Shown: piece after piece, positions 1,319 through 62,106 of the stretch
Layout: each line of letters begins with the position of its first letter
Numbering within the stretch: the first letter of the stretch is position 1
Assembly: GCA_017557525.1 (NCBI GenBank)
Contig: JAFYYN010000173.1
Span: 1 to 63,649 of the forward strand
Direction: 5' to 3'
DNA length: 63,649 nucleotides
Source: Lachnospiraceae bacterium
Lineage (GTDB): Bacteria; Bacillota; Clostridia; Lachnospirales; Lachnospiraceae
Translations under genes and position numbers: made by a program
The notes under the pieces: generated by a model
Seen by the model: the letters and a program-made list of their open reading frames with translations, nothing else
What the model was told of the DNA's origin: nothing
The model's database searches: none

Positions 1319-1996
1319 ATGAATGATGTAAAAAAAATAGGCATTTACAACAACAAAGGCGGCGTTGCGAAAACAACATCTGTAATAAATCTCGCATACG
1401 CATTTGCCAAAAAAGGAAAGCGTGTACTTGTAGTTGACTGTGATTATCAGGAAAACTGTTTCTCGTTTTTCTTTTCAAATCAGTCCACAAAAGGTATATT
1501 TGATACAGAATATGATGGTATAATGCATACTACTTGGGATAAATATACTTCCCTTGACGTTGATACAAATATCAACGAGTTTGATTATATTATATTCGAT
1601 CTTCCCCCGGCACTCAGTGAGGAAGTTAAACTGATAATACAGCACCTCGATGCTGTATATGTTCCAACAATGCTCGGTGAATTTGAGATACAGGGTTTGA
1701 CTAAGGTCACCAATGAGATCAATAATCAGGGAACAAAGCTCGGTGGTATCTTCGTTACCATGTTTCAGGCTAAGAATGATAAAGAACTCATTGATGAATT
1801 TCGTAATGTACTCAAAGAACGTCTTATGCAGTCTGTAATTCCCTATTCTACTACTGTACGTGAATCACAGAAAGCCGGACTTCCCATAGAAGCATACTTT
1901 ATTGAAAGAAATGTACCGAATATTGGCACATCATGGAAAATAGTTAATGCATACGAAGGTCTTGCTGATGAAATACTTAAGGAGGTAGAAGCATGA
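1319..1996 (+). CDS. parA: ParA-family partition ATPase
   Basis: Soj/ParA-type ATPase of 225 aa. The deviant Walker A box KGGVAKTT lies at residues 13-20, with the Walker A' aspartates of VVDCDYQ following and FDLPP as the Walker B region. Such proteins use ATP-driven DNA binding to segregate plasmids and circular ICE intermediates together with ParB. It overlaps parB by the 4-bp ATGA, so the two are translationally coupled. Its codons 81-86 are one copy of the element-wide GTTGATA palindrome, placed in a surface stretch between motifs. Confidence 0.9.
   Translation: MNDVKKIGIYNNKGGVAKTTSVINLAYAFAKKGKRVLVVDCDYQENCFSFFFSNQSTKGIFDTEYDGIMHTTWDKYTSLDVDTNINEFDYIIFDLPPALSEEVKLIIQHLDAVYVPTMLGEFEIQGLTKVTNEINNQGTKLGGIFVTMFQAKNDKELIDEFRNVLKERLMQSVIPYSTTVRESQKAGLPIEAYFIERNVPNIGTSWKIVNAYEGLADEILKEVEA
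1559..1576 (+). repeat. 18-bp palindrome copy 1 (in parA)
   Basis: Exact GTTGATACAAATATCAAC. Translated in frame as VDTNIN. Confidence 0.9.
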
Positions 1997-2976
1997 AGGG
2001 AAATATGTTCGATAATTTAAAAACAGTTGTTTCAAATACTCTTACTGATGATATAAAGATGATTAATATCAATGAGCTGCATGAATCAGCTGATAATTTC
2101 TTTGTTGTAGAGAATATAGAACAATTCGCTCAGACAATACTCGGTCAGGGTGGCGTTAAGGATAATCTTATTGTAAGACCACTTGAAACAGGTGGCTATG
2201 AGATTATCAGTGGGCATAGACGTAAAGCTGCTGTTCAGTACCTTATTGATAAAGGTGAGAATATCTCCCATGTTCTCCCCTGCCTTGTACAGAACTACGC
2301 TGATGAAGATGATAAAATGCTTAACCTGATACTCATGAATGTTTCGGCACGTCAGTTGTCCGATCAGGAGCTTTGGAAGAGTTATGAAACAATTGATAGA
2401 ATTTTAAAGGACAAAAAAGAAAAAGGTGAATATTACGGCAGACTTCGTGATGATATTGCCAAAACACTCGGCGTTTCCTCCGCACAAGTAGGAAAAATGC
2501 AGAATGTTGAGAAATATGCAATAAATTCCGTTAAGGAAGCCGTAGCAAGTGGAAACCTTTCCATAAGCACAGCCAATGAGATAGCGAAACTCGATAAGAA
2601 AGAACAGAAAAAAATTAAAGATCTTAACAAGGTGCAGCCAAAGGACATAAAGAAAAAAGTCGTTGATACAAATATCAACGCTAAAAGAAATGTCAATAAT
2701 GATGAGGAAGATTTTGTTGATATAAGTATCAACGAAGAACTTGATATTCAAAAGAAATTAAGAGAAACGACAATGCACATCAATGGAGAAACAGTTGTTC
2801 CTACAAGTACCAACAATGACAATTATACTGCAAGTGCGATGAAAGGATATTTAATGCTTGCAGCTGAGGAAGCTTCTTTTTCAAAAGAGCAGATAAACGC
2901 ACTTTTAGGTGGAATGATGAAAGCACTATCGAATTACGATAAGGCAGCAGCTGAGAACAAGTATCTTTCAAGGTAA
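1993..2976 (+). CDS. parB: ParB-like partition protein
   Basis: A 327-aa ParB/RepB-type protein. The N-terminal ParB/Srx domain has the box ISGHRRKAAVQYL near residue 75, which in ParB proteins is the CTP-binding region. A helix-turn-helix follows (about residues 155-200, GVSSAQVGKMQ...). A charged linker then carries two copies of the 18-bp palindrome (residues 224-229 and 242-247). The C-terminal 60 residues are helical. It partners the ParA encoded just upstream. Its DNA site is unknown, but the 23-copy GTTGATA palindrome is the obvious candidate. The canonical chromosomal parS was not seen. Confidence 0.85.
   Translation: MKGNMFDNLKTVVSNTLTDDIKMININELHESADNFFVVENIEQFAQTILGQGGVKDNLIVRPLETGGYEIISGHRRKAAVQYLIDKGENISHVLPCLVQNYADEDDKMLNLILMNVSARQLSDQELWKSYETIDRILKDKKEKGEYYGRLRDDIAKTLGVSSAQVGKMQNVEKYAINSVKEAVASGNLSISTANEIAKLDKKEQKKIKDLNKVQPKDIKKKVVDTNINAKRNVNNDEEDFVDISINEELDIQKKLRETTMHINGETVVPTSTNNDNYTASAMKGYLMLAAEEASFSKEQINALLGGMMKALSNYDKAAAENKYLSR
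2662..2679 (+). repeat. 18-bp palindrome copy 2 (in parB)
   Basis: Exact consensus GTTGATACAAATATCAAC, read in frame as VDTNIN in the parB linker. Confidence 0.9.
2716..2733 (+). repeat. 18-bp palindrome copy 3 (in parB)
   Basis: Both arms intact with spacer TAAG. Reads VDISIN in frame, 54 bp after copy 2. Confidence 0.85.
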
Positions 2977-2994
2977 GGAGGACCTTTAAGTATC

Positions 2995-3636
2995 ATGTAT
3001 AATCTTAGTGAACAACCTATAAGTAAAATACTGGAAGAAATGACGGATTTTACTCCATTAAAAAAAACAGCAATATTTACCGTAAAAGAAAAGTTTGATT
3101 TAAACGATACAGTATATGAAATTGGAGACCATGTAGCGATTTGCAGCTTGGATGATACGACAATATATATAATGCCGTATGAAGAATTAAAAAAATATAA
3201 ATCAGCTCAATTTAATAAAGCTTTATCATTAAATAAAACATCTATGTTTACGTCAATAGATCAATTCAAGGAAAGGTTTGAATTATCAGAAATTGAAACA
3301 GAAAAAGTTGTAACAATTCAAGACGAAATTCAGGGGATAGAAAACTTGTATAATAAGCAAATATCTTCAGTGTTAACAGACCACTATTGTAGTGAAGCTC
3401 AAATTCTTATCCTTTCATTTGGCACTTTGATGGCTTTGGTACTTTTAGCATGGAGTATATGTGACCCCTCATTATTGGCAATAATACCGTGTATTATTAT
3501 TGGAGCTATAGTTATTATAGAGTGGTATGATTTTTTGAGTAAAAGTAAAAGAATAAAAAAAGTGGAAGAAGCTCAATCAGCTGCATTCGATGCTTTAGAT
3601 AATCAGCGGTCTGAAAACGGAATGCTCGTAAAATAA
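2995..3636 (+). CDS. Membrane protein of unknown function
   Basis: 213 aa. A soluble N-terminal part of about 130 residues is followed by two closely spaced hydrophobic segments (near residues 135-155 and 158-178) and a short charged tail. I do not recognise the family. AAGGAGG lies 14 bases upstream of the ATG, a rather long spacing. It follows parB by 18 bp in the same direction and starts a run of small membrane-protein genes. Confidence 0.7.
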   Translation: MYNLSEQPISKILEEMTDFTPLKKTAIFTVKEKFDLNDTVYEIGDHVAICSLDDTTIYIMPYEELKKYKSAQFNKALSLNKTSMFTSIDQFKERFELSEIETEKVVTIQDEIQGIENLYNKQISSVLTDHYCSEAQILILSFGTLMALVLLAWSICDPSLLAIIPCIIIGAIVIIEWYDFLSKSKRIKKVEEAQSAAFDALDNQRSENGMLVK

Positions 3637-3659
3637 TTTTCTTTTCAATATTGATAAAG
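3636..3659 (+). repeat. Pyrimidine-rich intergenic motif (degenerate copy)
   Basis: ATTTTCTTTTCAATATTGATAAAG resembles the recurring TTTTCTTTTTCAATAAAG motif found between genes elsewhere in the element. It sits directly after a stop codon. Confidence 0.45.
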
Positions 3660-4615: not shown

Positions 4616-4759
4616 ATGAATGATATAAAAGTAGTATGTGATTGCAGCGATTGCAGCAATAATGAAGATGGTCTTTGCACTGTAGAAGAAGTATTTATAA
4701 GCCGTGACGGAGAATGTTGGACATTTGATAAGAAGAAAGGAAAAAGCAATGAAAACTAA
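4616..4759 (+). CDS. Cysteine-rich small protein, DUF1540-like
   Basis: 47-aa ORF starting MNDIKVVCDCSDC, with five cysteines in a C-x-C-x2-C ... C ... C arrangement. The pattern (an early C-x-x-C pair, Asn/Asp-rich middle, later single Cys) recalls DUF1540 small metal-binding proteins of Clostridia; this is a likeness only. AAGGAG precedes the start. Its 3' end overlaps the next gene by 11 bp. Confidence 0.55.
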   Translation: MNDIKVVCDCSDCSNNEDGLCTVEEVFISRDGECWTFDKKKGKSNEN

Positions 4760-5111
4760 CATAATTATTGTGGTAGCTGCACTTTTTGTAAACATAGTCT
4801 CCATAATATGCTTTACCAAAGTGAAAAACCACGAATTGAAGTCAGTATATAAAACACTCCCTATTCTTATCAATATATCCTCAGCCTTTTTAATCTTAAT
4901 CCAAGGCATAAAGCAAAGCTCGTTGGATTTGATCTATGATAAACTTCCAATACTTCTAATAATTCTTGCATTAGGTTTCATTTCCTATTTCATTATGGAC
5001 TGTAAAATGAAAAATGAGAATGTGGTTGAAGCAGCGGAAAATCCCATCTATCAGAATAATAAACGGGATACAAGAAAGGAATATTACAAAAAACATAAAA
5101 AGAAGCGTTGA
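4749..5111 (+). CDS. Membrane protein of unknown function, 120 aa
   Basis: Start chosen at MKTNIIIVV (4749), behind GAAAGGAAAA. A longer form to 4704 is possible but lacks a ribosome-binding site. Three hydrophobic helices (about residues 3-20, 34-52, 63-82) are followed by a very basic tail (KKHKKKR). The TGA stop is formed by the palindrome at 5107-5124. Function unknown. Confidence 0.6.
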   Translation: MKTNIIIVVAALFVNIVSIICFTKVKNHELKSVYKTLPILINISSAFLILIQGIKQSSLDLIYDKLPILLIILALGFISYFIMDCKMKNENVVEAAENPIYQNNKRDTRKEYYKKHKKKR

Positions 5112-5124
5112 TACAAATATCAAC
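5107..5124 (+). repeat. 18-bp palindrome copy 4 (supplies a stop codon)
   Basis: Exact consensus. Its TGA (5109-5111) is the stop of the preceding gene. Confidence 0.9.
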
Positions 5125-7991: not shown

Positions 7992-8009
7992 GTTGATACA
8001 AATATCAAC
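7992..8009 (+). repeat. 18-bp palindrome copy 5 (intergenic)
   Basis: Exact consensus between ssb and 8081, downstream of the 7922 promoter. Confidence 0.9.
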
Positions 8010-8041: not shown

Positions 8042-8059
8042 GTTGATACTTATATCAAC
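8042..8059 (+). repeat. 18-bp palindrome copy 6 (intergenic)
   Basis: Arms intact, spacer CTTA; 50 bp after copy 5 (start to start) and just before the ribosome-binding site of 8081. Confidence 0.85.
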
Positions 8060-8080: not shown

Positions 8081-8356
8081 ATGCATGGTGAACCTGAGAG
8101 AGAAATAATGAGAAAAAAACGAAATGCTATTGTCTCAGCTTTAAAAGAAGTAGAAGCACAAAGTGACACCAAGTTTTTTAATTACACGGGAGTGGACGTA
8201 AAAATGGGTGAAGAATACATATTCTTTATCGGTTGTAATGGTATTAACTATTCCATTCCTTATGAATTATTTATGTCTCTTCCTCAAAAAAGACTTGTTA
8301 TTGAAGTTGCAAGGGCATTATCAATTGAGTTTAATGACTATGGTGAAGGGTGTTGA
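8081..8356 (+). CDS. Unknown small protein, 91 aa
   Basis: Soluble protein of 91 residues starting MHGEPEREIMRKKRN behind AAAGGAGG. Helix, strands, then helix. No motif recognised. Its stop codon TGA is part of palindrome copy 7. Two further palindromes lie upstream, so its expression may respond to whatever binds them. Confidence 0.6.
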   Translation: MHGEPEREIMRKKRNAIVSALKEVEAQSDTKFFNYTGVDVKMGEEYIFFIGCNGINYSIPYELFMSLPQKRLVIEVARALSIEFNDYGEGC

Positions 8357-8369
8357 TACAAATATCAAC
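8352..8369 (+). repeat. 18-bp palindrome copy 7 (supplies a stop codon)
   Basis: Exact consensus. TGA 8354-8356 ends the preceding gene, and the site lies 26 bp before the lipoprotein start. Confidence 0.9.
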
Positions 8370-11468: not shown

Positions 11469-14021
11469 ATGAGTGTTCCCCGTCCAAAGCCGCGAATAAC
11501 AACATCTACCGTTATAATAAGTGGTGTTGCTACTCTTATTATTGCGTTCTTAGCTGCTATGTTGGGCGGAGCAATGGACTTCTCGGTTAAACCAAACGGC
11601 AAAGTAGATGCTTCAAAGCTCGGTCAAGGCTTAAAGCAAATAGCATCGAATATGTCATATCTTTTCTCTCATATATCAGATAAAAACAGCTATGTACCCA
11701 AGATGGCTTTTTTAAGCCTAATGTGTTTAGCTGTTTTTTTCATATATAAATACAGTGAAGAAAAGAAAAGGCTACATCGAAAAGGTACTGAATACGGTTC
11801 TGCTAAGTGGGGCAATGAAAGCGAAATGAAAAGCCTTGCTGAAAAAGAAAAAGAACCTGTATTTAAGCCTGTTCTACGAAACGGAGAACGAGTATTTGAT
11901 GATAAAAATAACTTTATTGGATTTAATATTGATAATAATATTATTCTCACCAAAGAGGTCAAGTTATCATTGAATACATATCAGCATAATCTTAACCTAA
12001 ATGTTATGATAATCGGTGATGCCGGTTCAGGTAAAACAAGATATGTAGCTCTTCCTAATATATGTCAGCTAAATACGTCTTATGTAATTACCGATCCTAA
12101 AGGTGAAATCCTTGCTAACACAGGAAAAATGCTCACGGAAGCGGGATATAAGATACGAGTATTTAATCTGATACAGATGAAATATTCAAATAATTACAAT
12201 CCTTTTGATTATGTTTATGACTATGAAGGTAACTTTTCAGAGCAAGAAGTAATCAAGATGATTGAAGTATTATTCTCTGCTACAAAGGGTGACGGAGAAA
12301 AGGACGATTTCTGGTCACAGAAAGGTAGAGCACTACTTGAAGCAATTGTTTTTCTCCTTTTTGAAGAAAGCATATATAACGCAGAATGGGACGATAACGG
12401 TAATGTTATAGAGACTTCGAGAGATAGAACTCATTTGAATTTCTTTTCAATAACGGAAAAAATGAGAAAGCTCATGTATCCGCCCCGTGGTTCAACTGAC
12501 GGTTACTTCTTGGAAAGAGAAATAAATGAATCTGACGAAGATTACTTAAAAAGGCGCAAAGCTGCTTTCCTTTGTCCGCTTGACTATGACTTTATAGAGC
12601 TTGAAAGCCGAAATCCTGATTCACTGGCTATAAGGCTATATAAGGAAATAAGACAAGCACCTGAAGAAACAGGACAATCGTTTCTTTCTTCAGCGAATGT
12701 CAAAACATTCATGTTCAATCTGAATGAAGTCGAGAACCTGACGTGTTGCGATAATATTCAACTTGAAACTATTGGTGATGAAAAAACTGCACTATTTATA
12801 ATCGTGCCGGCAAAGGATAAAACTTTTAGTTTCCTTGTTACAATGCTATACACACAGATGTTTGATGTGCTTCAAAACAGAGCTAACTTTAAATATTCAA
12901 ACAATGACCGTAAGCTCCCCGTTCATGTTCGCTGCATCATGGACGAGTTTTGTAATATACCACAAATACCTGATTTTGACGAAACTATAGCGTTTGTACG
13001 TTCAATGAATGTAAGTCTTAATGTTATTATTCAGACATTATCACTTTTTAAAGCGAAGTACGAAAAAACATGGGAAGCGATAATAGGTTGTTGTAGTTCT
13101 ATATTGTTCCTCGGTGGTAATGAAGATACTACCAAAAAATACATATCAGAGTCTCTTGGTAAAGAAACTATTGATATAAAGGGCAGAAACAGGACTAAGG
13201 GCGCAAGGCAGTCCAGTACAAACGAGAATAATCAGATAATTGGAAGAGAGCTATTACAGCCTAATGAGGTTGGTTCTATACCAATTGATGAATGTATTCT
13301 GATTATGCGTTCTCACAATCCATTTTACTGCAAAAAATATCCATTGGAAAAACATCCGAATTATAGTTTTTTAGCTTTATCAGGTACAGATAAGGAGAAA
13401 GCTGAAAAGCAATTTCAAATCAGTTCAATTACAGCATTATCAGTCAAGGACGTTAAGCCTGTGATTCCCGTTGATATAAATATCAACGAGCAAGTACAGG
13501 TCAACAAGGCAGCACCTTACGATTTGAAGGTTGATACAAATATCAACGCTTTTCCTAAGAGCAGTTCTTTGACCGAAGATGTGCTGATTGATACATTTTC
13601 TTCAACCGCAGCCGATATTCTCAGCTTGTTTGAAAGCAAGAATGTCAGAATATACGGAGAAGAAGAGCTACTTAATGAAGTAGTCGAATATTCAAAAGTG
13701 CACTTTGAATTTGACAGCTATGATTTAGGTGAACCTATGATACAGGGAAAGGAGGAAATTTCAAGTGAAGATCAGGAACCGTTCACGCCCGACATTTTAA
13801 ATCCTGACGGAAGTATTAACGAAGCTCAGAGTGAGCTTAATGAAAGTCCTACGGACACAGTACAATTCAATATACCTGATACGACAGCTTCGCCAATCGA
13901 GGATTTATCCCCCGAAATAATTGACGAGGCTGTTGTTATTACGGAGAATTCAACTCCACCATTATCTGATCTTGTCGCTGACTTAGCATCAGATGGCAGA
14001 TTTGATGATATTTCAATGTAA
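11469..14021 (+). CDS. VirD4/TraG-type coupling protein (T4CP)
   Basis: 850-aa ATPase that would link the relaxase-DNA complex to the secretion channel. N-terminal membrane helices lie at about residues 14-35 and 76-94. Walker A GDAGSGKT is near residue 184, and a Walker B-like CIMDEFCNIP near 490. The C-terminal 180 residues are an acidic, low-complexity tail containing two palindrome copies that read VDININ and VDTNIN. Membrane-bound, at the cytoplasmic face of the transfer machine. Confidence 0.9.
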   Translation: MSVPRPKPRITTSTVIISGVATLIIAFLAAMLGGAMDFSVKPNGKVDASKLGQGLKQIASNMSYLFSHISDKNSYVPKMAFLSLMCLAVFFIYKYSEEKKRLHRKGTEYGSAKWGNESEMKSLAEKEKEPVFKPVLRNGERVFDDKNNFIGFNIDNNIILTKEVKLSLNTYQHNLNLNVMIIGDAGSGKTRYVALPNICQLNTSYVITDPKGEILANTGKMLTEAGYKIRVFNLIQMKYSNNYNPFDYVYDYEGNFSEQEVIKMIEVLFSATKGDGEKDDFWSQKGRALLEAIVFLLFEESIYNAEWDDNGNVIETSRDRTHLNFFSITEKMRKLMYPPRGSTDGYFLEREINESDEDYLKRRKAAFLCPLDYDFIELESRNPDSLAIRLYKEIRQAPEETGQSFLSSANVKTFMFNLNEVENLTCCDNIQLETIGDEKTALFIIVPAKDKTFSFLVTMLYTQMFDVLQNRANFKYSNNDRKLPVHVRCIMDEFCNIPQIPDFDETIAFVRSMNVSLNVIIQTLSLFKAKYEKTWEAIIGCCSSILFLGGNEDTTKKYISESLGKETIDIKGRNRTKGARQSSTNENNQIIGRELLQPNEVGSIPIDECILIMRSHNPFYCKKYPLEKHPNYSFLALSGTDKEKAEKQFQISSITALSVKDVKPVIPVDININEQVQVNKAAPYDLKVDTNINAFPKSSSLTEDVLIDTFSSTAADILSLFESKNVRIYGEEELLNEVVEYSKVHFEFDSYDLGEPMIQGKEEISSEDQEPFTPDILNPDGSINEAQSELNESPTDTVQFNIPDTTASPIEDLSPEIIDEAVVITENSTPPLSDLVADLASDGRFDDISM
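13470..13487 (+). repeat. 18-bp palindrome copy 8 (in T4CP tail)
   Basis: Arms intact, spacer TAAA. Reads VDININ in frame. Confidence 0.85.
13530..13547 (+). repeat. 18-bp palindrome copy 9 (in T4CP tail)
   Basis: Exact consensus. Reads VDTNIN in frame, 60 bp after copy 8. Confidence 0.9.
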
Positions 14022-15081: not shown

Positions 15082-16257
15082 ATGCAAGGGGTAATACCAT
15101 ATCCCTATTACCAAAAATTAAAGAAAACACGCAGAATAGCCTATACAGCTATTATTGTATTTGGTCTGCTTCAAATATTCTTCCCTTTAGTAGCTCATGC
15201 CGATCTGTTTGGTTTTCATGTACATGATGTTTATACTGATATTACAGAGAATTGTATGGAAACTAACAACATTCTTACTAAAGCATTTAGCTTTTCAAGA
15301 TTATCTCCGTGGACGGTATTGAATAACTTACCGGCAGGCAGTGGAGATTATCAGATAGCAAATGCCATTCACAATGCGACCAAAACTATGGCTCTTGTCA
15401 CCGCAACTCTGCTTCTTATGGTTGATTTCTTTAGGAAATCCATTAATTTTGAATGGTCATCACGTTGGGAAAATATATTGATATTCCTGATAAAAATCAT
15501 AGTCATAAAACAAGTCGTTCAGAATGCAGACACAATCATGGGATATATTTATTCTATGTTTGACTCTATAAACGCAGCAGCAACAGGTACGTCCAATGAA
15601 TTCTTACCATGTGGTGATAAGCACACATACCTCATAAATTTCCCCGAAGGAACTTTTAAGCAATTAGATAAAGGTTGGTTTGAATATTGGGCAGACAAAA
15701 AAATGGGTAATGATTACGAACAGGCAAGATATACTATTTCTCATGATGCTGTCAGAATGTTCTATCCCAACGCTACATTCCCACATAAAGAGGACGGTTC
15801 TATTAAGGTTGCTATTGGATTAGGTGAATTCTATGACGCATTTCGACCACCTAAAGAGGGAAATTTCTTTCCTTTATGGGAAATAGCAAGAAATCAGTGG
15901 ATGTTTATTGTAATGAAAGCGATTGCATACATTGTATTCGTAATAGTTATTGGTCGAGTATTCGAGCTTACTATATACACTATCTTTGCTCCCCTTCCTC
16001 TTGCAACATTTGCTTCTGATACAACAAATGACGTTGCAAAGAGCTTCATTAAGAACTATATAGCGACAATACTGCAAATAGCAGTTATTGTAATGATGTT
16101 TGTCGCATTTGTTGCTACTAATGCAGCAGCTGCAAAGTGGATGCAAACAAACGGTTATACATCATTTAATATAATGTTCTTTATTGAGCTGTGTGCTTTA
16201 GGACTTGGAGTTATGCGTTCAGGCGCATGGTCTAAGAAAATATGTGGTATAGGTTGA
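15082..16257 (+). CDS. VirB6/TrbL-like polytopic membrane protein
   Basis: 391 aa. A first helix near residues 15-38 leads to an external segment, then a helix pair near 105-150. A polar loop (about 160-260) is followed by four or more helices to the C-terminus. The position between pilins and PrgI/VirB4 and the topology fit the VirB6/TrbL inner-channel protein. Its TGA stop is created by palindrome copy 10. Confidence 0.7.
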   Translation: MQGVIPYPYYQKLKKTRRIAYTAIIVFGLLQIFFPLVAHADLFGFHVHDVYTDITENCMETNNILTKAFSFSRLSPWTVLNNLPAGSGDYQIANAIHNATKTMALVTATLLLMVDFFRKSINFEWSSRWENILIFLIKIIVIKQVVQNADTIMGYIYSMFDSINAAATGTSNEFLPCGDKHTYLINFPEGTFKQLDKGWFEYWADKKMGNDYEQARYTISHDAVRMFYPNATFPHKEDGSIKVAIGLGEFYDAFRPPKEGNFFPLWEIARNQWMFIVMKAIAYIVFVIVIGRVFELTIYTIFAPLPLATFASDTTNDVAKSFIKNYIATILQIAVIVMMFVAFVATNAAAAKWMQTNGYTSFNIMFFIELCALGLGVMRSGAWSKKICGIG

Positions 16258-16270
16258 TATAAATATCAAC
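16253..16270 (+). repeat. 18-bp palindrome copy 10 (supplies a stop codon)
   Basis: Arms intact, spacer TAAA. TGA 16255-16257 ends the VirB6-like gene, and the site sits just upstream of the next gene's GGAGG. Confidence 0.85.
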
Positions 16271-19208: not shown

Positions 19209-19226
19209 GTTGATACAAATATCAAC
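19209..19226 (+). repeat. 18-bp palindrome copy 11 (intergenic)
   Basis: Exact consensus, 4 bp after the virB4 stop and just before the next gene's GGAGG. Confidence 0.9.
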
Positions 19227-21158: not shown

Positions 21159-21560
21159 ATGAAATCTCACAAGGACAGAGTAGAAAAAATAAGAGAGACA
21201 ATTGACAACAACAAAGTTTTTTCTGTTGTAGTCGTTGTGCTTCTTTTCATTATTATTGGCAGTATTGTTACGAATAAAGTTAATGACTATATGAAACATA
21301 AAGCCGCTAATGATACAAGTATCAGCGAAGAACAGAACGCTGCGGACGCCAATATTATTGAAATGCAAGATGATGTTGATACAAGTATCAACGACGAAGA
21401 AGCTGCCGTTGATACAAATATCAACAATGAAAGTACGGTGAAGAATGAAAAACCTCACTGGAGATTTTATTGGATTGACCTTTGGATATTACTTGGTGGC
21501 GGTGGATTTTGCCTGATTAAAATAATGCAAGAAAAGAAGAAAGCGAGGGAAAAACTGTAA
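21159..21560 (+). CDS. Single-pass membrane protein rich in palindrome-encoded peptides
   Basis: 133 aa. A basic N-terminus is followed by a transmembrane helix (about residues 20-42), then a polar segment with three peptides of the same origin (NDTSIS, VDTSIN, VDTNIN) encoded by palindrome copies. A second hydrophobic stretch (about 107-123) and a basic tail follow. Function unknown. The stop overlaps the next start by one base (TAATG). Confidence 0.65.
   Translation: MKSHKDRVEKIRETIDNNKVFSVVVVVLLFIIIGSIVTNKVNDYMKHKAANDTSISEEQNAADANIIEMQDDVDTSINDEEAAVDTNINNESTVKNEKPHWRFYWIDLWILLGGGGFCLIKIMQEKKKAREKL
21375..21392 (+). repeat. 18-bp palindrome copy 12
   Basis: Arms intact, spacer CAAG. Reads VDTSIN in frame. 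Confidence 0.85.
21408..21425 (+). repeat. 18-bp palindrome copy 13
   Basis: Exact consensus. Reads VDTNIN in frame, 33 bp after copy 12; a decayed copy is at 21309-21326. Confidence 0.9.
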
Positions 21561-23686: not shown

Positions 23687-24041
23687 ATTAAAATCCTTGA
23701 ATAAAAAGGTTCAGACCTTGAAAACTGCAATTGCAAAATCCGAAAGCAACGCTGAGAGCAAAAGGGAGAAGATCAAGGAATTACAAGATGAATTGGACGA
23801 AATTCTCAAAGACATTGAAAAACAGAAATCAGAGTTAGCTAAAAAGGAAGATGAACTTAAAAAGGCTGAATATTCTGACGCTCTCGAAATGTTAGATAAT
23901 GCAGCATTAAGCAAACTCTCTAAAAGGCAGGCAGAACAGCTTGCACAGCATATATTATCAGGCAATTTAGCTTCTCTATTAGGAGATGAAGCAAGTGATA
24001 ATGACGAAAATAAAGCCGTTGATACAAATATCAACGGCTGA
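23673..24041 (+). CDS. Coiled-coil protein ending in a palindrome-encoded tail
   Basis: 122 aa, starting inside the 3' end of the previous gene (14-bp overlap, GGAGG upstream). Residues 5-75 are a strong coiled coil, followed by a helical segment. The last residues are VDTNING, encoded by palindrome copy 14 and then the stop. Function unknown. Confidence 0.65.
   Translation: MNKVELKSLNKKVQTLKTAIAKSESNAESKREKIKELQDELDEILKDIEKQKSELAKKEDELKKAEYSDALEMLDNAALSKLSKRQAEQLAQHILSGNLASLLGDEASDNDENKAVDTNING
24018..24035 (+). repeat. 18-bp palindrome copy 14
   Basis: Exact consensus. Encodes the C-terminal VDTNIN of the coiled-coil protein. Confidence 0.9.
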
Positions 24042-28489: not shown

Positions 28490-31400
28490 ATGTTAGAGCC
28501 TACACCCGTCGGACATTTCAGTAAACTTGGCGCACAGACTATTGCAAAAGTCACAAGTAACGATGCTGAATATCTCAAATTCTTGAAGTATTTCGGTAGA
28601 GTTTTCAAGCATCCTGTTTCCGTTGCGCTTGAATTCTATTCAAACAAGCCTGACGCACAGTTCATTGCTTCAAAAGGGCAATGGGAACGTGCTGATTATC
28701 ATGTTGCTATCGGTGCAAAAGGTATTAATTTTCTCGATCAAAAGGGCAATTTGATTACTCTTTATGATTTTGAGGACGTTATTGAGGAAATACCGCCAAA
28801 GCGTTGGTCTGTTACTCAGAATAATGTTTCTGCAATACGTTCTCAGCTTAATTTACCTTCTGACACTCCATTGTTCATTGAGTTAGAAGGCTCTGTAACC
28901 TCTCCAATCGACGATTTGAGCATTATTCAGGATTTGGGACTTGCAGCATTGCCTGATACTGACAAGCTAAAATTCCGTGATTCTTATCATAACATGATAC
29001 AGGTTATGCTTACAGGCAGACTTGAAGTAAACGGAGCAATATATAGAATACAACCTGACAGAGCTGCTTTAGGCTATTGTCAGACTGACGAGCAGAAGTT
29101 TTATCTTCTTACCGCAGCAGCTTCGGCTGCAAGAAAAGCTCTAACAAGTCTTGAATATGCATTTGATACACTCCGTACACAGAATGAAATAATCAGAAAG
29201 GAAGCGAATGAAAATGAAATACGCAGAATGGCAGAAACTCAGTCAGGAAGAAAAGCTGACAGTACCGGCAGCGGACTATCCGCAGCTTCAGACTACGGAA
29301 CTTCACAACGGAGTAACATCAGCGAAAGTAGAGAAGAAGGACGGACAGATAGGCTGGCTTCTGACACAGGAAGTCGGGGCAATGAAACAGGAGAAATGGT
29401 TTCCGGAGATAACAACGGAAACACTGAAATCGGGAACAGAAACGATAGAGCAGCCATATCTTCTGAATCCGTTGGACGGTCTGTACACTCCGATGATAGA
29501 GTACAACGAACCATCACTGGAGGAACAGCCGATAGGGATATTCGGCAAAATGTGGATGGAGAATATGGAGAAGAATTACCCGGAGAAAGTCGAAATGATG
29601 ATGTTCTTTCACAGGTATCTGACGGTAGCAAGGTCGGTGGACAAGAGAGCGGAGGAATATTACGATCAGCTGAGCGAACAGTACAACAGGAACAATCCAC
29701 GTCCTCAGAACAGCTCGGAGGAAATAGCGACTTGGGAGACAATGAAGAAATACGAGATAGAACACCTGATAATGACGGAAGTAGTTCTCGTACCGGTAAC
29801 GACTCCCTGAACGTTGATATAAATATCAACTCAGAAATTGCCGATAAATGGGACAATCTCGATGTTATAATAGATAATAAGAATGGTTCTATTGATTGGA
29901 TTTACTTTAATCCTGATAGTCTATCTGGTGGTCAGCTCGTTATCAATCATATCCGTGATGAGCAATTTGAGGAAGCTTCAAGATTTGACAGCATTTACGA
30001 TTATCTTAATTCTGTAGCTGATCAGCAGCTTGTCGATATTGATACATCAGATTTTTATGTTGCTGCTACTCAGTATCTTGATATTGCTGATAATGGGAAC
30101 GCTGCATTAGTCAGCACAACCGGCAATTCAAAGGAAATAGAGCAGTTCTTGCAGAACTACGCCAAAAATTTAAAATTGAATAATAATGCTTACGCTGAGT
30201 ATCGTGCTTCACTGCGGAATACGGTTTATACCCGTCTGAACGATACCCAGCGTTTTAAATTCTCCCATTGTAAATACGTTGAAGAACCAAAAAACTGCAT
30301 TTGGGGACAAATAGATAACGCTGTACGTATAAACAATGGTATTTTTGAGGTTTCAACAGCTTCACACGGCGGTATTATGATAAGATCCGAGGTGGCAAAA
30401 GCGATTTTATCAAGAGAAGCTCAGAAAATCGCACAGAAAGAACACGATTGGTATTTCTATGAGGAAGATTGTGCTTATGCTGTAGCATTGAGAGAAATCG
30501 TTGATAAAAACCTGTTCAGCGATATTAATTCTTATTTTTCAAAGCAGTATAACAAGACAACAGACGATTTCCTCCCGAAATTCAACGAAGCAATAAATCT
30601 TTCTCTACAGCGTTGGTTCTCGTCATATTGGGATAAGCGTGAGACAGCGTTATATAATACCTTGTCTCCTGAAGAACAGGCAGAAGAAATAGGACAGCTT
30701 TCTTTCGGGGATAATGCTGCGGAGAGCGTAGAAGATAAAGAGGTTTCAGCTATCAGAAGTCGTGAGATACAAAAAGCTATCCATGATATTAAGCGACGAA
30801 TAGATAACTTCGATCCTCAAACCGGTAAGTCACAGGAGCTTGAAAAACAGAAAGCTTTACTAAAATTCTTCCAATCTGCAAATAGCAACGATATTGAGCT
30901 TACTCCTGAGAGCTTTAAGAGTTTTATGGAACAGTCTGCCGTTGATACAAATATCAACAGTGATGCAGCTGATAAGCAGACTAATTTGCAAGCTCTTTTC
31001 AGCGTAGAAGTCAACGGAGAACAGAGCTTTTATAAGGTCAGCAATAAATCATCTGATGATATACTGCGTATTGCAAAGTCTGAATTACCGAGGTTAGGCT
31101 TTAACAACATCGGTGATAAGATAAGTGAAATAGAGTATGCTGAAATACAGCAGAGTTCTGCCTTTACATTCTCTGTAGATATCAATCTCGATACTAATAT
31201 GGCAAGTCTTTATAGTGTAAACCAAGGATACGGAGGTATATCAGAGGGAGATAGGACAGATGATAATGTAAGCATAATAAATATCCGTCTTTCTGATTAC
31301 AGAGTGCCTTATCGTGGACTTGCAGCTGAGAAAATACCTGTAAGTGCAAGCTATGCAATATCTATGTGGGAGAATGGTTTCCCCGTATATCTGAATAATG

Positions 31401-34400
31401 AGGTCGTTCCGAAAAGGAATGAGCTTGCAGTGGGTACCGATGTGACTGAACTGTTCAGTGATGATAAAGTATTTTCAGCTGAATTTGGCGATGTTAAAAA
31501 GCAGCAGTTGATAGATGCTGTATCAAGTGATATAAGCGATATTGATGCTGCAATGCCCGAAGAAAAATACATTGATATACGTGATTTCGTAGAGCACGAT
31601 GAAAATAACGTATTTGAATGGGATAACGGACAAAATGTATATTTGAACGTCACCAAAGCTCTTATAGACCGTAATATGGGATTCATTGATGATTATCTCA
31701 CTGCTGTTAAAAATGAATTTGACAGCTTTAGAGGTGAAACAGCGCAGAATAGGCTTGTAGAGTATGCGAATTATGCGCCACCTGAGAAAGAATGCGATAC
31801 GGTCTTAGATATGCCTGAATATAGTTTGAGCATAGATCTCAAGGAGATTGATGAGCTTTATATCAAAGATGAGTATTCATATTATGAGGGCGGTATAGAT
31901 TCTGACGGTCATGAGCGAAAAGATAATTATTCTCGTCATAATAGAAGCCTTACAATCAGTCTTGATCCATACGGTGTTGTATATGTAAATTCGTATGATG
32001 ATAGAGATTTGTACGATCCTTATCGTGAAAAAGATTATGATGTTTCAGATTCAAATGAAGTTAAGGCTCTCAGAGAACAGGTTATCGAGTTTATAAAAAC
32101 ATCAGAAGATTTGTCAATAACCTCATATAATGAGGGAAGAACACAGGATTTTCAAGTAAAAGCAGCTGATAGTGAAACTGCAATTGCTGATGATAATATG
32201 CTTTCTTCCGGTCCGATTGTGGACGGTGTACAGGTCTATGAAGCTCTCGCAGCCGAAATAGACAGAGGTACGGGTTTTGTCAACGGAAAAATACGTGTAC
32301 AGGAGTTCTATGAAAAAAGTCGTAGCATTCCTAATCATCCTACAACCAAAGAATTAGCTGAATGCCTGAAAAAAGAATATGGTATTGGCGGTCATAGTGG
32401 CAGCGGCAATATTACTATGGTTGATTATAACAGCAAAGGCATGACTTTTTCTTTTCAAAATGGTGAGAAATTCCGTCATTCATGGTTTGATGTAGCTTCA
32501 TTAGCTGAATATCGCCTTAGAGAGAACATATATCTTTCACCTGAACAGCAAAATGAATGGCAAAGAATAAAAGCTAACCGTTCACCGGAGCTTAATTATG
32601 AGCCTTATGAAATTAAAATCGGAGATCAATTCCGTCAGAAAGCTACTCATGTAGTTTCTGAGGTTGTAGCCCTTACAGACACAGAACCGTATTATAAGGG
32701 CGATTATACCGTCAAAAGAATGCAGGGAGCTTCTGAGATAACTGAAAACGTTTCATATAATATTCTTCTCAGCGATTTATACCAATTCATCGGTAATTCC
32801 AACGACTTAAAAGCTGAACAGGAAAAAGATAACTCAAATACATTTGAGATATACCAAGTTAAAAGTGGTGAAGATTATCGTTATTACAGGTTTACGAGCT
32901 ATGAAATGCTGCACAACGAAGGAAATACAGTTGATTTCAATAATTATGAGCTGAAATATACAGCTGAACTTGTTGACGGAACAACACTTGAAGATATTTA
33001 CACACGCTTCAATGTAGAACATCCCGATGATTTTACTGGACATTCGCTATCTGTAAGTGATGTTATTGTCGTTCACGATGATGATGTTACTACTGCATAT
33101 TATATTGATGATGTTGGGTATAAGAAAGTTCCTGAATTCCTTCAGTTAGAGCAGAAAGAGGATATTGTTGAGGATTTCCAAAATAAAAATACTGCAACAA
33201 CTGATACACCTGATTATAGTCAAGCAATACATGAGGGCTTTACAGCTTTATATAGTAGTCACACCTATACTGAAAAGCAAAATAAATTTCTTAAACGTCT
33301 TGAAAACTACGCTGCAAATAACAATGTGACCGAAAACATTGTCAATACGGCATTTGAAAAGGGTGCTGCATTTAGAAATACTTACGGTAACAAGGAATAT
33401 ATAAGTCGTAATCTTTTTGCAAGGCGTTTAGGCTCTCTTGAAAAAGAGCTTGAAAGTAATATAAGAGCTGTTATAAATCCACAGGAGCTTGAAGAAAAGA
33501 TACATCAGGTTATTACCAATGCCGGTTATGACGGTGGCGTTGACGAAAAAAAGGAATATACTTCATTCAAAGAAGCTCTTGAAGTCGGACAGAAATATAT
33601 TGAGGACGGTTATCTTGGATTTGCGATTTATAATCAGAATACGCAAATGATAGAGCGTGTAGAAGGAGATTTCCCTGTAACAACTGCTTTCAGCGATGAA
33701 ATACTAAAAATTAATGGTATAGATAATCGGAAAGTTGAAGTGAATACCGTTATAAATGGCAATAACTTGGAGAATACTGATGCTTTGGCAACTGCAAAGC
33801 AGCTTATAAATGAGTTTTGCGAAGATGAATACGAAATATCAGCTGATTTCAGTGATATGCATAACGTAGCACTTGCACACACAACGCTAACCGATGAACA
33901 AGTACCAGTTCAAGTTACAGCTGACTTATTAGACTATAAACTCATATATGAGTTTGGCTATGAAGTGTTCAAAACAGAGAAGTTCAGCAGCATTGAAGAT
34001 ATGGTTCAGAACGGGCTCACAGGTCTTGATTTTGCTGACCTTGTCGATGTTCCTGATGAACTTATCGAAAAATACGTACCGAATATAAAGGATTACTACA
34101 ATCAATATGCGATTTTATCACGTTGCAAGCAAGACTGTATTTATGCTATAAACAGAGCAGAACACATCGACAGTATAAAAAGCTTAAACAAATATCTTTA
34201 TCTTGGTTCTGTTGATGGTTGTATCAGCACTATGCATGAGCTGTACGAACAGTTACCGGATAATGCAAAGCCTGAATGGTTGACACTTGAAGATATAAAT
34301 GAATATGAAACGCAGCTTACTGAAATTTCCCGAAATATAGCTTCAAATCCCGTTGATACAAATATCAACGCTGAAACAACTGTTGATACAAGTAGCAACG

Positions 34401-46063: not shown

Positions 46064-46785
46064 CAAAGCTGAATGCAACACAAATAAAGGTCATAGCAAT
46101 TATAGCTATGACCATAGATCATATTGCAGAGCTTTTCGTTCCGTATGGTTCTGCACTATATTATATAATGAGACTCATAGGAAAAATAACAGCTCCTGTT
46201 ATGTGTTATTTTCTTGCAGAGGGTTTCAGATATACGCATGATAAGAAGAAATATATATTGCGACTTTCGTTGTTTGCTGCCATAAGTCAGCCTGCATATT
46301 ATATACTTGTATATGGTGCAGCTCCTTCCAGTACAGCTCACCTCCTGCAGAATCTCAACTTCTTATTCAGCTTACTATTAGCCTTTATATGTTTACTTAT
46401 CCTGACTAACAGTAAGCTGAATGCTGCATTGAAAGTAGTCTTTACCGTGATAACAATATCATTTACTCAGTTTGTAGATTGGGGGTTGATTATCCCGGTA
46501 TGGACAATAATTTTTTTCTTTTTCAATAAAGACATTATGAAAATGACGTTGCTATTTATATCAACGACATTAATTATTCTGCCGGTGACGTTCCTGAAAC
46601 TATATGATAGTTTCGGATATTTCACTCTCAACTATGGTGCGCTTCTCGCTCTGATCCTGATACTTTTATATAACGGTAAGCGTGAACGCTGCAGCACTCC
46701 ATTGAAAAAGAAAATCAATCGTTGGTTCTTCTACGTTTACTATCCCCTGCACATGATAATAATATCTGTCATAGCCTATAAATGA
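46060..46785 (+). CDS. traX: TraX family membrane protein
   Basis: 241 aa, polytopic with six or more transmembrane helices. The opening LNATQIKVIAIIAMTIDHIA and PVMCYFLAEGFRYTHDKKKY are typical of TraX proteins, which acetylate pilin in F-like plasmids; in Firmicutes the substrate is unknown. Translationally coupled to the relaxase. It contains a chance-looking copy of the pyrimidine motif (46511-46531). Confidence 0.88.
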   Translation: MTKLNATQIKVIAIIAMTIDHIAELFVPYGSALYYIMRLIGKITAPVMCYFLAEGFRYTHDKKKYILRLSLFAAISQPAYYILVYGAAPSSTAHLLQNLNFLFSLLLAFICLLILTNSKLNAALKVVFTVITISFTQFVDWGLIIPVWTIIFFFFNKDIMKMTLLFISTTLIILPVTFLKLYDSFGYFTLNYGALLALILILLYNGKRERCSTPLKKKINRWFFYVYYPLHMIIISVIAYK

Positions 46786-49828: not shown

Positions 49829-49846
49829 GTTGATACAAATATCAAC
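49829..49846 (+). repeat. 18-bp palindrome copy 18 (intergenic)
   Basis: Exact consensus upstream of the 49865 gene. Confidence 0.9.
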
Positions 49847-52133: not shown

Positions 52134-52299
52134 AGTCATGGTAACTAATGTGTTTTCTTTTTCAAGAAAGTTGATACAAATATCAACCAAATCGAAATAA
52201 TTCGACATAATTCGACTTTTTCCCTTTTTTTATTCTGATGCCTTTTATCAGATCGTGTGTTATAATGATACTATCATCTTAATTATGGAGGTATCTACA
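52134..52299. promoter_or_regulatory. Regulatory region before 52300
   Basis: Contains a pyrimidine motif (52151-52170), palindrome copy 19, two AATTCGAC repeats with the palindrome TCGAA-ATAA-TTCGA (52194-52207), and an extended -10 (TGTTATAAT, -10 at 52261-52266) without a clear -35. The TCGAA repeats may be an operator. Confidence 0.45.
52170..52187 (+). repeat. 18-bp palindrome copy 19 (intergenic)
   Basis: Exact consensus, directly abutting the pyrimidine motif. Confidence 0.9.
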
Positions 52300-53502: not shown

Positions 53503-53520
53503 GTTGATACAAATATCAAC
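53503..53520 (+). repeat. 18-bp palindrome copy 20 (before recombinase)
   Basis: Exact consensus, 16 bp before the recombinase start codon, next to its ribosome-binding site. Confidence 0.9.
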
Positions 53521-54350: not shown

Positions 54351-54368
54351 GTTGATACAAATATCAAC
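54351..54368 (+). repeat. 18-bp palindrome copy 21 (left edge of defence island)
   Basis: Exact consensus; the last copy before 7.6 kb without any. Confidence 0.9.
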
Positions 54369-57526: not shown

Positions 57527-59338
57527 ATGGAAAACAAAAATTGGATGATTGAATTAGAAAAAACCGCTGCACAAAAATCAATACAAGGCTATCCAACATT
57601 ATGGTGGCAAGGAAAACGCCCATATAATGTTGCAATGTATTATCCAGCGCAAGAAAGAGAAATATATGGAACACCAGATATTGAAACCGGATGGATGAAC
57701 AAGATTTTTTGGGGCGATAATCTGCAAGTTATGAGCCATCTTTTAAAAGAATTTCATGGTAAAATAGACCTTATCTATATTGATCCACCTTTTGATTCAA
57801 AAGCTGAATATAAAAAACAGATTTCCGTTAAGGGTGTTGGTTCTGCAGAAAGTGATATATCTTCATTTGAAGAAAAACAATATGGGGATATTTGGACTAA
57901 TGATGAATACCTTCAGTTTATGTTTGAGCGATTAAACATTATGAAAAATTTACTTTCAGATAAGGGTGCGATTTACGTTCACTGTGATTGGCATAAATCA
58001 GCTCATTTGAAACTTGTGATGGACGAGATTTTTGGACAACAGAATTTTAGAAATGAAATAGTATGGTGTTACAGAACATCTTTACGAAGCTCAGACAATT
58101 CGTTTGGTCGTGATCATGACACTATTCTTTTTTACAGCAAAACAAATAAGCATAAAATACACCCTGATCGTAAGGATTTTCCAGTAAGCGAAGCAACTAT
58201 AAAAAGATGGGCAGCATACGCAGACGAAAATGGTTTTGTAAGCAACAAACACTTTGCCGGAAGTAACAGTACAATTATAGATACTTCTGATGAAACAAAA
58301 GGCTTTTATATCAATCAAGGCATACCTCGCGATTGGTGGGAAATCTCTGCTAATGTTGCAAAAGGAAATACTTCTGAGGTTATCGCAGGAAAATATCCAA
58401 CTCAAAAGCCTGAAGAATTAGTCGAGCGTATTATAAAAGCCTCCTCTGACCCCGGTGACCTTGTGTTTGATTGCTTTATGGGAAGTGGAACAACACAAGC
58501 TGTTGCTATGAAGCTTGGACGAAGATTTATAGGTGCTGATATAAATCTTGGTTCTATTCAAACTACCACCAAAAGGCTTACATATTTAGCAAAGAAACTA
58601 AATGATACTACTCAAAAAGGCGAATCAGATTCAGCTATAAAATATACTGGCTTTACAGTTTACAATGTAAACAACTATGATTTCTTCCGTAATCCAATTG
58701 AAGCAAAGAATATAATAATCGATGCACTTGGTGTTCAACCGTTTCCTCAAGGAGATCTTTGGGATGGTGAACTTGATGGACGAATGGTTAAAATCATGCC
58801 TGTAAACAGAATTGCGACAAAAGCTGATCTTGCAGAATTAATACATAATATGCCTTATAAAGAATATGAAAAGCGAAAAGCTCAAAATATAAAAGAACCC
58901 GTTGAACATATTACTATAATTTGTATGGGACATGAGCCTGACTTAAAAGCAGGAATAATTCAAGAATTATCGCAATATGTTTGGGATATTGATATACTCG
59001 ATATTCTTAGTGATAAAAAGGATCTTCAACTCAAAAGAGAAGCAGAAGCAGAAATTGTTCGTGAGGGCGATAAACTCGTAATTCGTGAATATTATCCAAT
59101 GAACCTTATGCAGAAACTTTCACTTCAAAAAGATAACTATGTCGAAGATTGGAGACAGCTCGTTGACTCCATTATGATTGATTGGAATTATGACGGTGCT
59201 GTAATGCAGCCTTCAATAATTGATATTCCCGACAAAAAAGCTCTTGTTTCAGGTATTTATGACATTCCAAAGAACGCCGGTATAATTCGAGTAAAAGTTA
59301 CAGATCTTCTTTCAGAATCTCTTGAAATGGAGGTGTAA
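57527..59338 (+). CDS. Type III Mod-like DNA methyltransferase
   Basis: 603 aa, start at MENKNWMIELEKTA with TGGAGG. Beta-class order of motifs: YIDPPFDSKAEY (catalytic DPPF, residue 86) before VFDCFMGSGTTQAVA (SAM-binding, about residue 315). Between them lies a probable target-recognition stretch. N6-adenine methylation is expected. Unusual opening (YPTLWWQGKRPYNVAMYYPAQ). The helicase gene stops 14 bp before it; its own end nearly meets the next gene. Confidence 0.88.
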   Translation: MENKNWMIELEKTAAQKSIQGYPTLWWQGKRPYNVAMYYPAQEREIYGTPDIETGWMNKIFWGDNLQVMSHLLKEFHGKIDLIYIDPPFDSKAEYKKQISVKGVGSAESDISSFEEKQYGDIWTNDEYLQFMFERLNIMKNLLSDKGAIYVHCDWHKSAHLKLVMDEIFGQQNFRNEIVWCYRTSLRSSDNSFGRDHDTILFYSKTNKHKIHPDRKDFPVSEATIKRWAAYADENGFVSNKHFAGSNSTIIDTSDETKGFYINQGIPRDWWEISANVAKGNTSEVIAGKYPTQKPEELVERIIKASSDPGDLVFDCFMGSGTTQAVAMKLGRRFIGADINLGSIQTTTKRLTYLAKKLNDTTQKGESDSAIKYTGFTVYNVNNYDFFRNPIEAKNIIIDALGVQPFPQGDLWDGELDGRMVKIMPVNRIATKADLAELIHNMPYKEYEKRKAQNIKEPVEHITIICMGHEPDLKAGIIQELSQYVWDIDILDILSDKKDLQLKREAEAEIVREGDKLVIREYYPMNLMQKLSLQKDNYVEDWRQLVDSIMIDWNYDGAVMQPSIIDIPDKKALVSGIYDIPKNAGIIRVKVTDLLSESLEMEV

Positions 59339-59342
59339 GATT

Positions 59343-62021: not shown

Positions 62022-62038
62022 GAGATTGAAAATGAATA

Positions 62039-62056
62039 GTTGATACAAATATCAAC
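62039..62056 (+). repeat. 18-bp palindrome copy 22
   Basis: Exact consensus, 17 bp after the Res-like gene; right edge of the defence island. Confidence 0.9.
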
Positions 62057-62088
62057 AGTATAAAAGCCTATAAATAGGCAAAATGTTC

Positions 62089-62106
62089 GTTGATACAAAT
62101 ATCAAC
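62089..62106 (+). repeat. 18-bp palindrome copy 23
   Basis: Exact consensus, 50 bp after copy 22, the same start-to-start spacing as copies 5 and 6. Confidence 0.9.

What the first reader, a model, noticed from the sequence alone, without database searches (positions are those of the whole stretch)
1559..62106. An 18-bp palindrome, GTTGATA-N4-TATCAAC, occurs 23 times across the element
Seventeen copies are exactly GTTGATACAAATATCAAC. Six keep both 7-bp arms but change the 4-bp spacer (TAAG, CTTA, TAAA three times, CAAG). Conserved arms with a drifting spacer is the pattern of a dimeric protein's binding site. The element encodes its own ParA and ParB, so a dispersed centromere or a Noc-like/silencing network is plausible. 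I know of no described site with this sequence.
Basis: partly seen in the sequence, partly recalled or inferred. Interest (0 to 1): 0.88.

Follow-up and report, generated by a model that had tools for sequence, protein, structure and literature searches.

The report
Scattered ParB centromere sites across ICE
A circular mobile DNA element of a bacterium carries 23 copies of one short mirror-image DNA sequence that most likely are landing sites for the element's own segregation protein, and in related elements the sites and the protein appear to change together.

Summary
In detail: 23 exact-arm copies of GTTGATA-N4-TATCAAC, none elsewhere in the 3.93-Mb draft host genome. Best reading: parS sites of the element's own ParB (1993-2973), dispersed over a 63.5-kb circular ICE. 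Evidence: (1) 14 of 39 related parB genes examined carry, in the coding linker downstream of the HTH segment, palindromes of the same architecture in six half-site versions (GTTGATA, GTTGCTA, GTTGCCA, GTTGACA, TGTGACA, TGTGGTA); a 15th has imperfect ones. (2) Half-site and recognition helix vary together (Mantel r 0.56, 0 of 5000 permutations as high, relatedness only partly removed). (3) A small XRE protein and a serine recombinase do not track the sites. (4) ICEs of R. flavefaciens FD-1 and genome G709 carry mainly GTTGCTA-type sites. Of 15 elements, 7 have sites only in parB (two on 5-kb contigs); window-like ICEs have them throughout. Precedents: repABC parS, and 14 parS on IncC plasmid R55. 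Not shown: binding, segregation, silencing. 8 of 17 GTTGATA-type copies in XPD3002 and 3 of 5 in FD-1 lie on contigs other than the ICE's, unexplained.

The parts
1319..1996 (+). parA (Walker-type ATPase)
   Evidence: Pfam AAA_31 2.2e-25, CbiA
1993..2976 (+). parB (ParB_N; HTH-like segment; linker with two sites)
   Evidence: Pfam ParB_N 1.2e-6; family profile matches Noc/ParB structures
1559..1576 (+). site, spacer CAAA, in parA, in frame
2662..2679 (+). site, CAAA, in parB linker, in frame
2716..2733 (+). site, TAAG, in parB linker, in frame
5107..5124 (+). site, CAAA, supplies stop codon TGA of ORF 4704-5111
7992..8009 (+). site, CAAA, intergenic, first of a 50-bp-spaced pair
8042..8059 (-). 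site, CTTA on + strand (reverse of TAAG), second of the pair
8352..8369 (+). site, CAAA, supplies stop codon of ORF 8081-8356
13470..13487 (+). site, TAAA, in VirD4-like coupling protein tail, in frame
13530..13547 (+). site, CAAA, in VirD4-like coupling protein tail, in frame
16253..16270 (+). site, TAAA, supplies stop codon of ORF 15082-16257
19209..19226 (+). site, CAAA, between VirB4-like gene and next gene
21375..21392 (+). site, CAAG, in ORF 21159-21560, in frame
21408..21425 (+). site, CAAA, in ORF 21159-21560, in frame
24018..24035 (+). site, CAAA, last codons of ORF 23673-24041, just 5' of the XRE gene
29813..29830 (+). site, TAAA, in 4049-aa helicase ORF, in frame
30941..30958 (+). 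site, CAAA, in 4049-aa ORF, in frame
34352..34369 (+). site, CAAA, in 4049-aa ORF, in frame (variant neighbour at 34382)
49829..49846 (+). site, CAAA, intergenic
52170..52187 (+). site, CAAA, intergenic
53503..53520 (+). site, CAAA, 5' of the likely serine recombinase start (ATG 53537)
54351..54368 (+). site, CAAA, intergenic
62039..62056 (+). site, CAAA, intergenic, first of a 50-bp-spaced pair
62089..62106 (+). site, CAAA, second of the pair
34382..34399 (+). variant site GTTGATACAAGTAGCAAC (hybrid half-sites)
46548..46565 (+). variant site GTTGCTATTTATATCAAC
63365..63382 (+). variant site GTTGTTACAAGTAACAAC
63509..63649 (.). exact copy of bases 1-141: the contig closes into a 63,508-bp circle

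Best explanation
The 23 palindromes are parS (centromere) sites of the ParB encoded by the element itself. A ParB dimer puts one helix-turn-helix on each half-site GTTGATA(C). By analogy with other CTP-dependent ParB proteins it then closes into a clamp and slides off along the DNA, so that 23 loading points, on average one per 2.8 kb, would let ParB cover the whole circle. Together with the adjacent ParA this would segregate the excised circular form of the ICE, and might also dampen its transcription. The sites probably began inside the coding linker of parB and later spread through the element, at places where V-D-T-N-I-N is tolerated in a protein or where 18 bp fits between genes. Shown by sequence: the sites, their confinement to this contig in this draft genome, their in-frame placement, their covariation with ParB in relatives. 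Inferred: binding, clamp loading, segregation, silencing, and the direction of spread.
For: ParA and ParB genes are adjacent; a profile of 19 ParBs matches Noc and ParB structures, and G74, R76, R77, A80, N116 and R120, which fall in the CTP motifs (motif identity recalled), are invariant among the 19. 39 ParB genes were examined (18, 21 more): all 19 places, 17 hand-picked places of the many, one each, and the window. 14 have coding palindromes with arms of 6 bp or more in the linker downstream of the HTH segment, 12 of the 14 in the window's frame (G302 and G539 in another); G689 has two imperfect ones; G750 is cut short. Half-site goes with recognition helix: SSAQVGKMQN or SPAQVGKMQN with GTTGATA; SASQ[I/V]GKMQN (FD-1, G709) with GTTGCTA; ASQVSKMQN and AAQVSKMQN with GTTGCCA; QVKKIQN with GTGGTA; QVRKIQN and QVSKLQH with GTTGACA; QISKIEH with TGTGACA. 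Mantel r 0.56, partial r 0.43 given the N-terminal domain, 0 of 5000 permutations each. FD-1 and G709 carry GTTG[C/T]TA-type sites over the ICE parts in hand. XRE24 has no convincing hit in 11 of 16 elements, including G651 with 58 kb in hand. Between window and UBA1190 ICE, arms are 95.4% identical and flanks 88.7% over the 17 of 23 sites that could be aligned.
Against: No binding data. The single window ParB finds no PDB chain by phmmer and stays below the NCBIfam cut-off for TIGR00180. The window-clade node of the ParB tree has support 0.40, and permutations do not remove relatedness; half-sites were assigned by hand and G724 and G747 have unequal arms. Against XPD3002 the 5 alignable sites are kept no better than flanks (65.7% against 73.5%, 1 of 5 identical). 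In XPD3002 8 of 17 and in FD-1 3 of 5 GTTGATA-type copies lie on contigs other than the ICE's, and G643 (12 copies), G636 (8) and G633 (5) have the motif without a close ParB. The centre follows transcription more often than a symmetric protein needs (coding 44 to 4, intergenic 20 to 6 in five ICEs, orthologues counted repeatedly, 14 further copies not tallied). The site is 18 bp, not the usual 16.
Confidence: 0.84

Rival explanations
1. Operators of the small XRE (Cro/CI-type) protein at 24061-24255, making the sites an ICE regulon. Operators of about this form are typical of such proteins (recalled).
For: Homologues of 52-88% identity occur in the ICEs of UBA1190 (two), FD-1 and XPD3002; sites or variants lie shortly upstream of the gene in the window, both UBA1190 copies and FD-1.
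Against: No hit in G709, G697, G689, G755, G651, G724, G759, G747, G640 and G539 and only a 27% stretch (E 0.19) in G302 (several are short contigs); 10 of these 11 have palindromes in parB and G689 imperfect ones. No site seen upstream of the XPD3002 copy. 11 window sites lie inside genes.
Confidence: 0.06
2. Crossover sites of the serine recombinase at 53537-54112, with AA as the 2-bp core.
For: Palindromic arms around a conserved AA centre in the window; one site 5' of the gene in the window and UBA1190.
Against: Homologues of 75% (G637:C12) and 86% (G634:C71) identity have no site, two mismatches allowed, in the 15 kb fetched around each; FD-1 C4 has none in the 150 bp upstream. Other ParB versions have AT or TA centres. 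Direct repeats all over an element would be expected to delete it (inference).
Confidence: 0.02
3. An RNA hairpin (7-bp stem, YAAR loop) acting in the transcripts, not a DNA site.
For: Centre orientation follows transcription in most copies; several sites stand just 5' of ribosome-binding-like sequences.
Against: Opposite-orientation copies exist in the window, UBA1190, XPD3002, FD-1 and G709; amino-acid constraint may explain the coding bias; half-sites change with ParB's recognition helix.
Confidence: 0.03
4. Sites of a Ruminococcus host DNA-binding protein that ICEs exploit.
For: Copies on other contigs in XPD3002 and FD-1, and in G643, G636 and G633, several next to terminator-like hairpins by eye.
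Against: The window's host has none outside the element. In FD-1, 15 of 17 relaxed matches on the ICE contig are not GTTGATA-type, while 3 of the 4 on other contigs are.
Confidence: 0.05

Closest known systems
parS of alphaproteobacterial repABC replicons (PMC9040568, passages read)
   Same: Palindrome recognised by a ParB-family protein; example GTTGACAGCTGTCAAC, consensus GTTNNCNGCNGNNAAC, arms like GTTGACA of G640 and G724; some sites within coding sequences.
   Different: 16 bp rather than 18, GC centre, almost always inside or near repABC; window sites are spread over the whole element.
IncC plasmid R55 parABS and SGI1 (PMC10954446, passages read)
   Same: 14 parS sites on a conjugative plasmid; a second mobile element carries two and uses the plasmid's ParB.
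   Different: Different palindrome (22-bp inverted repeat motif); lower density (plasmid size recalled); no array inside parB in the passages read.
KorB and its OB operators on RK2 (PMC11790492, passages read)
   Same: ParB-family CTP clamp with 12 binding sites (from a cited title) and long-range silencing; partition role recalled and from cited titles.
   Different: No KorB domain reported by Pfam here; no KorA partner looked for; different palindrome.
Chromosomal ParB/parS and Noc/NBS (PMC7383237, PMC7022226, passages read)
   Same: Recognition-helix residues set specificity; aligned helix positions vary here too. B. subtilis has 10 parS sites.
   Different: parS TGTTNCACGTGAAACA is 16 bp; 8 of the 10 B. 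subtilis sites are in the ori domain.
SXT/R391 ICE active partition (PMC4489591, search listing and abstract start only)
   Same: An ICE family with active partition.
   Different: Different host group; details not read.

Membership tests
ParABS partition system | Adjacent ParA-type Walker ATPase | tested here: met
   ORF 1319-1996, AAA_31/CbiA
ParABS partition system | ParB with N-terminal CTPase-type domain | tested here: met
   ParB_N 1.2e-6, above its cut-off; invariant G-H-R-R and N-R residues; profile match to Noc/ParB structures. Below cut-off for NCBIfam TIGR00180, 31.7 against 58.45 bits; no phmmer hit in the PDB.
ParABS partition system | ParB DNA-binding HTH | tested here: inconclusive
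   Alignable recognition-helix segment; profile positions 42-164 match chain 6t1f 53-170; no Pfam HTH hit; structure prediction did not finish.
ParABS partition system | Palindromic cis sites at or near parAB, matched to ParB | tested here: met
   Sites in parA and parB; covariation
ParABS partition system | Physical ParB-site binding and segregation | not testable with these tools
   Needs bench work
KorB-type global repressor | KorB DNA-binding or C-terminal domain | tested here: not met
   Pfam reports ParB_N only at E up to 0.001
KorB-type global repressor | Repression of element promoters | not testable with these tools
   -
Noc nucleoid occlusion | Membrane-targeting N-terminal helix | not tested
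   A conserved hydrophobic N-terminus is visible but was not analysed
Integrative and conjugative element | Integrase, coupling protein, VirB4-type ATPase, relaxase, circular form | tested here: met
   the integrated form was not seen in the own genome
XRE operator regulon | Regulator present wherever sites of this family are | tested here: not met
Serine recombinase crossover site | Site accompanies recombinase homologues | tested here: not met

The most novel reading that the evidence does not exclude
A mobile element has turned its whole sequence into a centromere: parS sites that arose as codons inside parB multiplied through the element's genes, so that ParB clamps coat the entire circle as an element-specific nucleoid protein that both segregates and silences it; ParB and its coding-embedded sites switch specificity together, which would make co-resident ICEs compatible, while neighbouring plasmids with copied sites (for example the Rep3-type contig L053) ride on it.
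Probability: 0.3. Interest if true: 0.82.

Novelty: new variant of a known kind. Interest (0 to 1): 0.68.

Why it matters
It gives a natural series of ParB proteins with matched, different sites, six half-site versions in 14 genes, each site embedded in the gene of its likely binder. That makes specificity change in a centromere system directly testable by binding assays. It also offers a case for asking why an ICE would need a centromere spread over its whole length, and whether such sites mainly segregate, silence, or set compatibility between co-resident elements.

Tried and rejected
Serine recombinase core site: considered because of the conserved AA centre; dropped because close homologues lack the site and other versions have other centres. 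XRE24 as binder: dropped. RNA hairpin: weak, see rivals. A distributed uptake-type sequence: few copies per genome. First palindrome scan reached only one locus and was redone on larger regions. Elements with ParB of about 40% identity (XPD3002 C39/C40) show no such palindromes in the stretches fetched. Three viral-contig hits of the 18-mer are single copies and were not followed. No paper in the held library contains any of the three 18-mers searched. Searches on parS within parB, dispersed ParB sites or ICE partition listed no paper whose title or abstract start describes parS arrays inside parB that spread over an ICE; most listed papers were not opened.
Full report
OBSERVATION. The 23 exact-arm sites are real and at the stated coordinates. 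Up to 2 mismatches gives 28 against 0.56 expected. All 23 of the own draft genome's matches lie in this contig. In 299 genomes of the family (own included) 11 match, the other 10 once each.

THE ELEMENT. The contig closes on itself: bases 1-141 recur exactly at 63509-63649, giving a 63,508-bp circle. It encodes a tyrosine integrase, ParA, ParB, a VirD4-type coupling protein, PrgI, a VirB4-type ATPase, a Mob_Pre/MobV-like relaxase (the MobV match is below its cut-off) and TraX. A stretch resembling a tRNA-Met 3' end (my reading; ARAGORN found no tRNA in the matching host locus) stands beside the integrase, and the UBA1190 ICE has parts of the same stretch beside its integrase. I call it an ICE, present here as a circle in the assembly; the integrated form was not seen.

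ANATOMY OF THE SITES. 22 of 23 read Y-A-A-R in the centre on the + strand, one is the reverse. 11 of 23 lie inside genes, all 11 in one frame, coding V-D-[T/I]-[N/S]-I-N; 3 supply the TGA stop codon of a gene; 9 are intergenic or 5' of a start. Across five ICEs, variants included, the centre follows the coding strand in 44 of 48 coding copies and in 20 of 26 intergenic copies whose direction could be called; orthologues were counted repeatedly, 11 copies could not be called and 3 in another frame or 5' of a start were not tallied. In coding copies the reverse orientation would put a cysteine in the peptide, which may explain part of this bias.

WHERE ELSE. The exact 18-mer occurs in 40 stretches of a collection of 84,980 species genomes; 31 of the 40 carry Ruminococcus names. 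In the 15 genomes that I took from those hits the arm pattern occurs 21 times in R. flavefaciens UBA1190 (G634), 17 in XPD3002 (G635), 12 in G643, 8 in G636, 5 in FD-1 (G639), 5 in G633, 1-3 in the other nine. UBA1190 and XPD3002 hold homologous ICEs (ParB 88% and 75%). On the 215-kb XPD3002 contig the matches lie between 164,120 and 190,757, within the ICE.

THE SITE CHANGES WITH ParB. The homologous ICE of FD-1 (ParB 66%) has mainly GTTG[C/T]TACAAGTA[G/A]CAAC (15 of 17 relaxed matches on its contig; two are GTTGATA-type), and so has G709 (ParB 78%). I then took all 19 ParB places at E up to 1e-30 in the genus of G635 (16 of 125 genomes), 17 hand-picked places, one each, and the window: 39 genes. 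Fourteen have, in the coding linker downstream of the HTH segment, palindromes with arms of 6 bp or more: window, UBA1190, XPD3002 GTTGATA; FD-1, G709 GTTGCTA; G697 GTTGATA with centre CATA; G755 three and G759 five copies of GTTGCCA (one of them GTTGACA) in tandem protein repeats about 111-117 bp apart; G640 GTTGACA; G724 GTTGACA on one side and TGTGACA on the other; G651 TGTGGTA and AGTGGTA; G747 AGTGGTA and TGTGGTA; G302, G539 TGTGACA. Twelve are in the window's frame, G302 and G539 in another. G689 has two imperfect copies in its linker. G750 is cut short. The sister group of seven and 16 further ParBs show none of this type at the thresholds used; four of the 16 (G385, G501, G527, phage Cormatin) have another recurring palindrome, of the form TGTCCG...CGGACA, in or just after parB. 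Peptide repeats such as K-K-V-A-T-N-G-N-F-S-E-D-D carry the site in the linker.

COVARIATION. Recognition-helix residues and half-site change together (table; Mantel r 0.56; partial 0.43; 0 of 5000 permutations each). The residue aligned by eye to Caulobacter ParB 173, a known specificity residue (PMC7383237, passages read), is among those that vary. Limits: 14 sequences, arms assigned by hand, relatedness only partly controlled, clade node support 0.40.

FROM ONE TO MANY. Exact matches to each element's own version: window 23 in 63.6 kb, UBA1190 19 in 62.9 kb of fragments, XPD3002 9 in 59.5 kb, FD-1 15 in 49.0 kb (flanks included), G709 11 in 20 kb, G697 4 in 40 kb (one in parB, three about 3-4 kb away), G689 1 (6 with two mismatches) in 47 kb; but G651 1 (2 with mismatches) in 58 kb, G302 1 in 57 kb, G539 1 (2), G724 2, G747 0 (2), G755 3 and G759 5 on 5-kb contigs, all of these in parB, and G640 0 (2, one in parB). 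Five shuffles per element gave means of 0 to 0.2. The simplest history is that sites arose in parB and spread in the window's lineage; this order is inferred.

CONSERVATION. Against UBA1190, 17 of 23 sites could be aligned; 14 have identical arms; arm identity 95.4%, flanks 88.7%. Against XPD3002, 5 aligned, 1 identical, arms 65.7%, flanks 73.5%. Against FD-1 0 of 2 and G709 0 of 5 are identical, keeping 11-12 of 14 arm bases.

OTHER BINDERS. Good XRE24 homologues were found in the window, UBA1190 (two), FD-1 and XPD3002 only, among 13 genomes and 16 elements. The serine recombinase has close homologues without sites.

MECHANISM. ParB dimers load at each site and, if this ParB is a CTP clamp as its conserved residues suggest, slide to cover the circle; ParA then moves the complex. 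Precedents are the 14 parS of IncC R55 (PMC10954446) and KorB on RK2, a sliding clamp and long-range repressor (PMC11790492); passages read. Segregation and silencing are inferred.

WHAT DOES NOT FIT. GTTGATA-type copies on contigs other than the ICE's in XPD3002 (8 of 17) and FD-1 (3 of 5), and copies in genomes without a close ParB (G643, G636, G633), remain unexplained. They may be hijacked sites, as SGI1 does with IncC, or relics, or parts of elements whose ParB is missing from draft assemblies.

Noticed in passing
window 7992-8059 and 62039-62106; L067 7485-7552; L072 8588-8655 and 8948-9015: Pairs of sites exactly 50 bp apart with a related 32-bp insert (near GCCTATAAATAGGC); at window 8352 one unit of such a pair is missing compared with UBA1190, as if lost between the repeats.
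   Followed up: partly
L053 6405 (in Rep3 gene 5595-6797), L053 225 and 5229, L034 296: Plasmid-like contigs without a ParB in view carry the site, one inside a Rep3 initiator gene with a peptide (KKVDTNINFSEND) like the ParB linker repeats; possible users of an ICE's ParB.
   Followed up: partly
L084, L085 (G643), L079 (XPD3002 C25), L042/L063 (FD-1): Copies between genes, several by eye right after terminator-like hairpins, near type I restriction, LRR or dockerin genes; L042 and L063 share the right flank of the site but not the left.
   Followed up: partly
parB of G385, G501, G527 and phage Cormatin (L097, L155, L152, L160): Another palindrome family (TGTCCG...CGGACA) recurs in or just after these more distant parB genes; perhaps their own site.
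   Followed up: no
window 50044-51424: Two neighbouring proteins with RNA polymerase alpha C-terminal-like domains just downstream of a site.
   Followed up: no
window 54609-62021: UvrD-type helicase with PD-(D/E)XK nuclease, DNA methylase, and a ResIII/TnsA-like protein in a row: looks like a defence cargo (not scanned against a defence library).
   Followed up: no
G637:C12 upstream of the recombinase (L118): The serine recombinase homologue has another palindrome-like stretch upstream (around ATAGAGTACACTCTAT), perhaps its real site.
   Followed up: no
L069 (UBA1190 contig 31): A second, diverged ICE fragment in UBA1190 with GTTGATA sites and, upstream of its XRE gene, one GTTGTTA and one GTTGCTA site.
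   Followed up: partly
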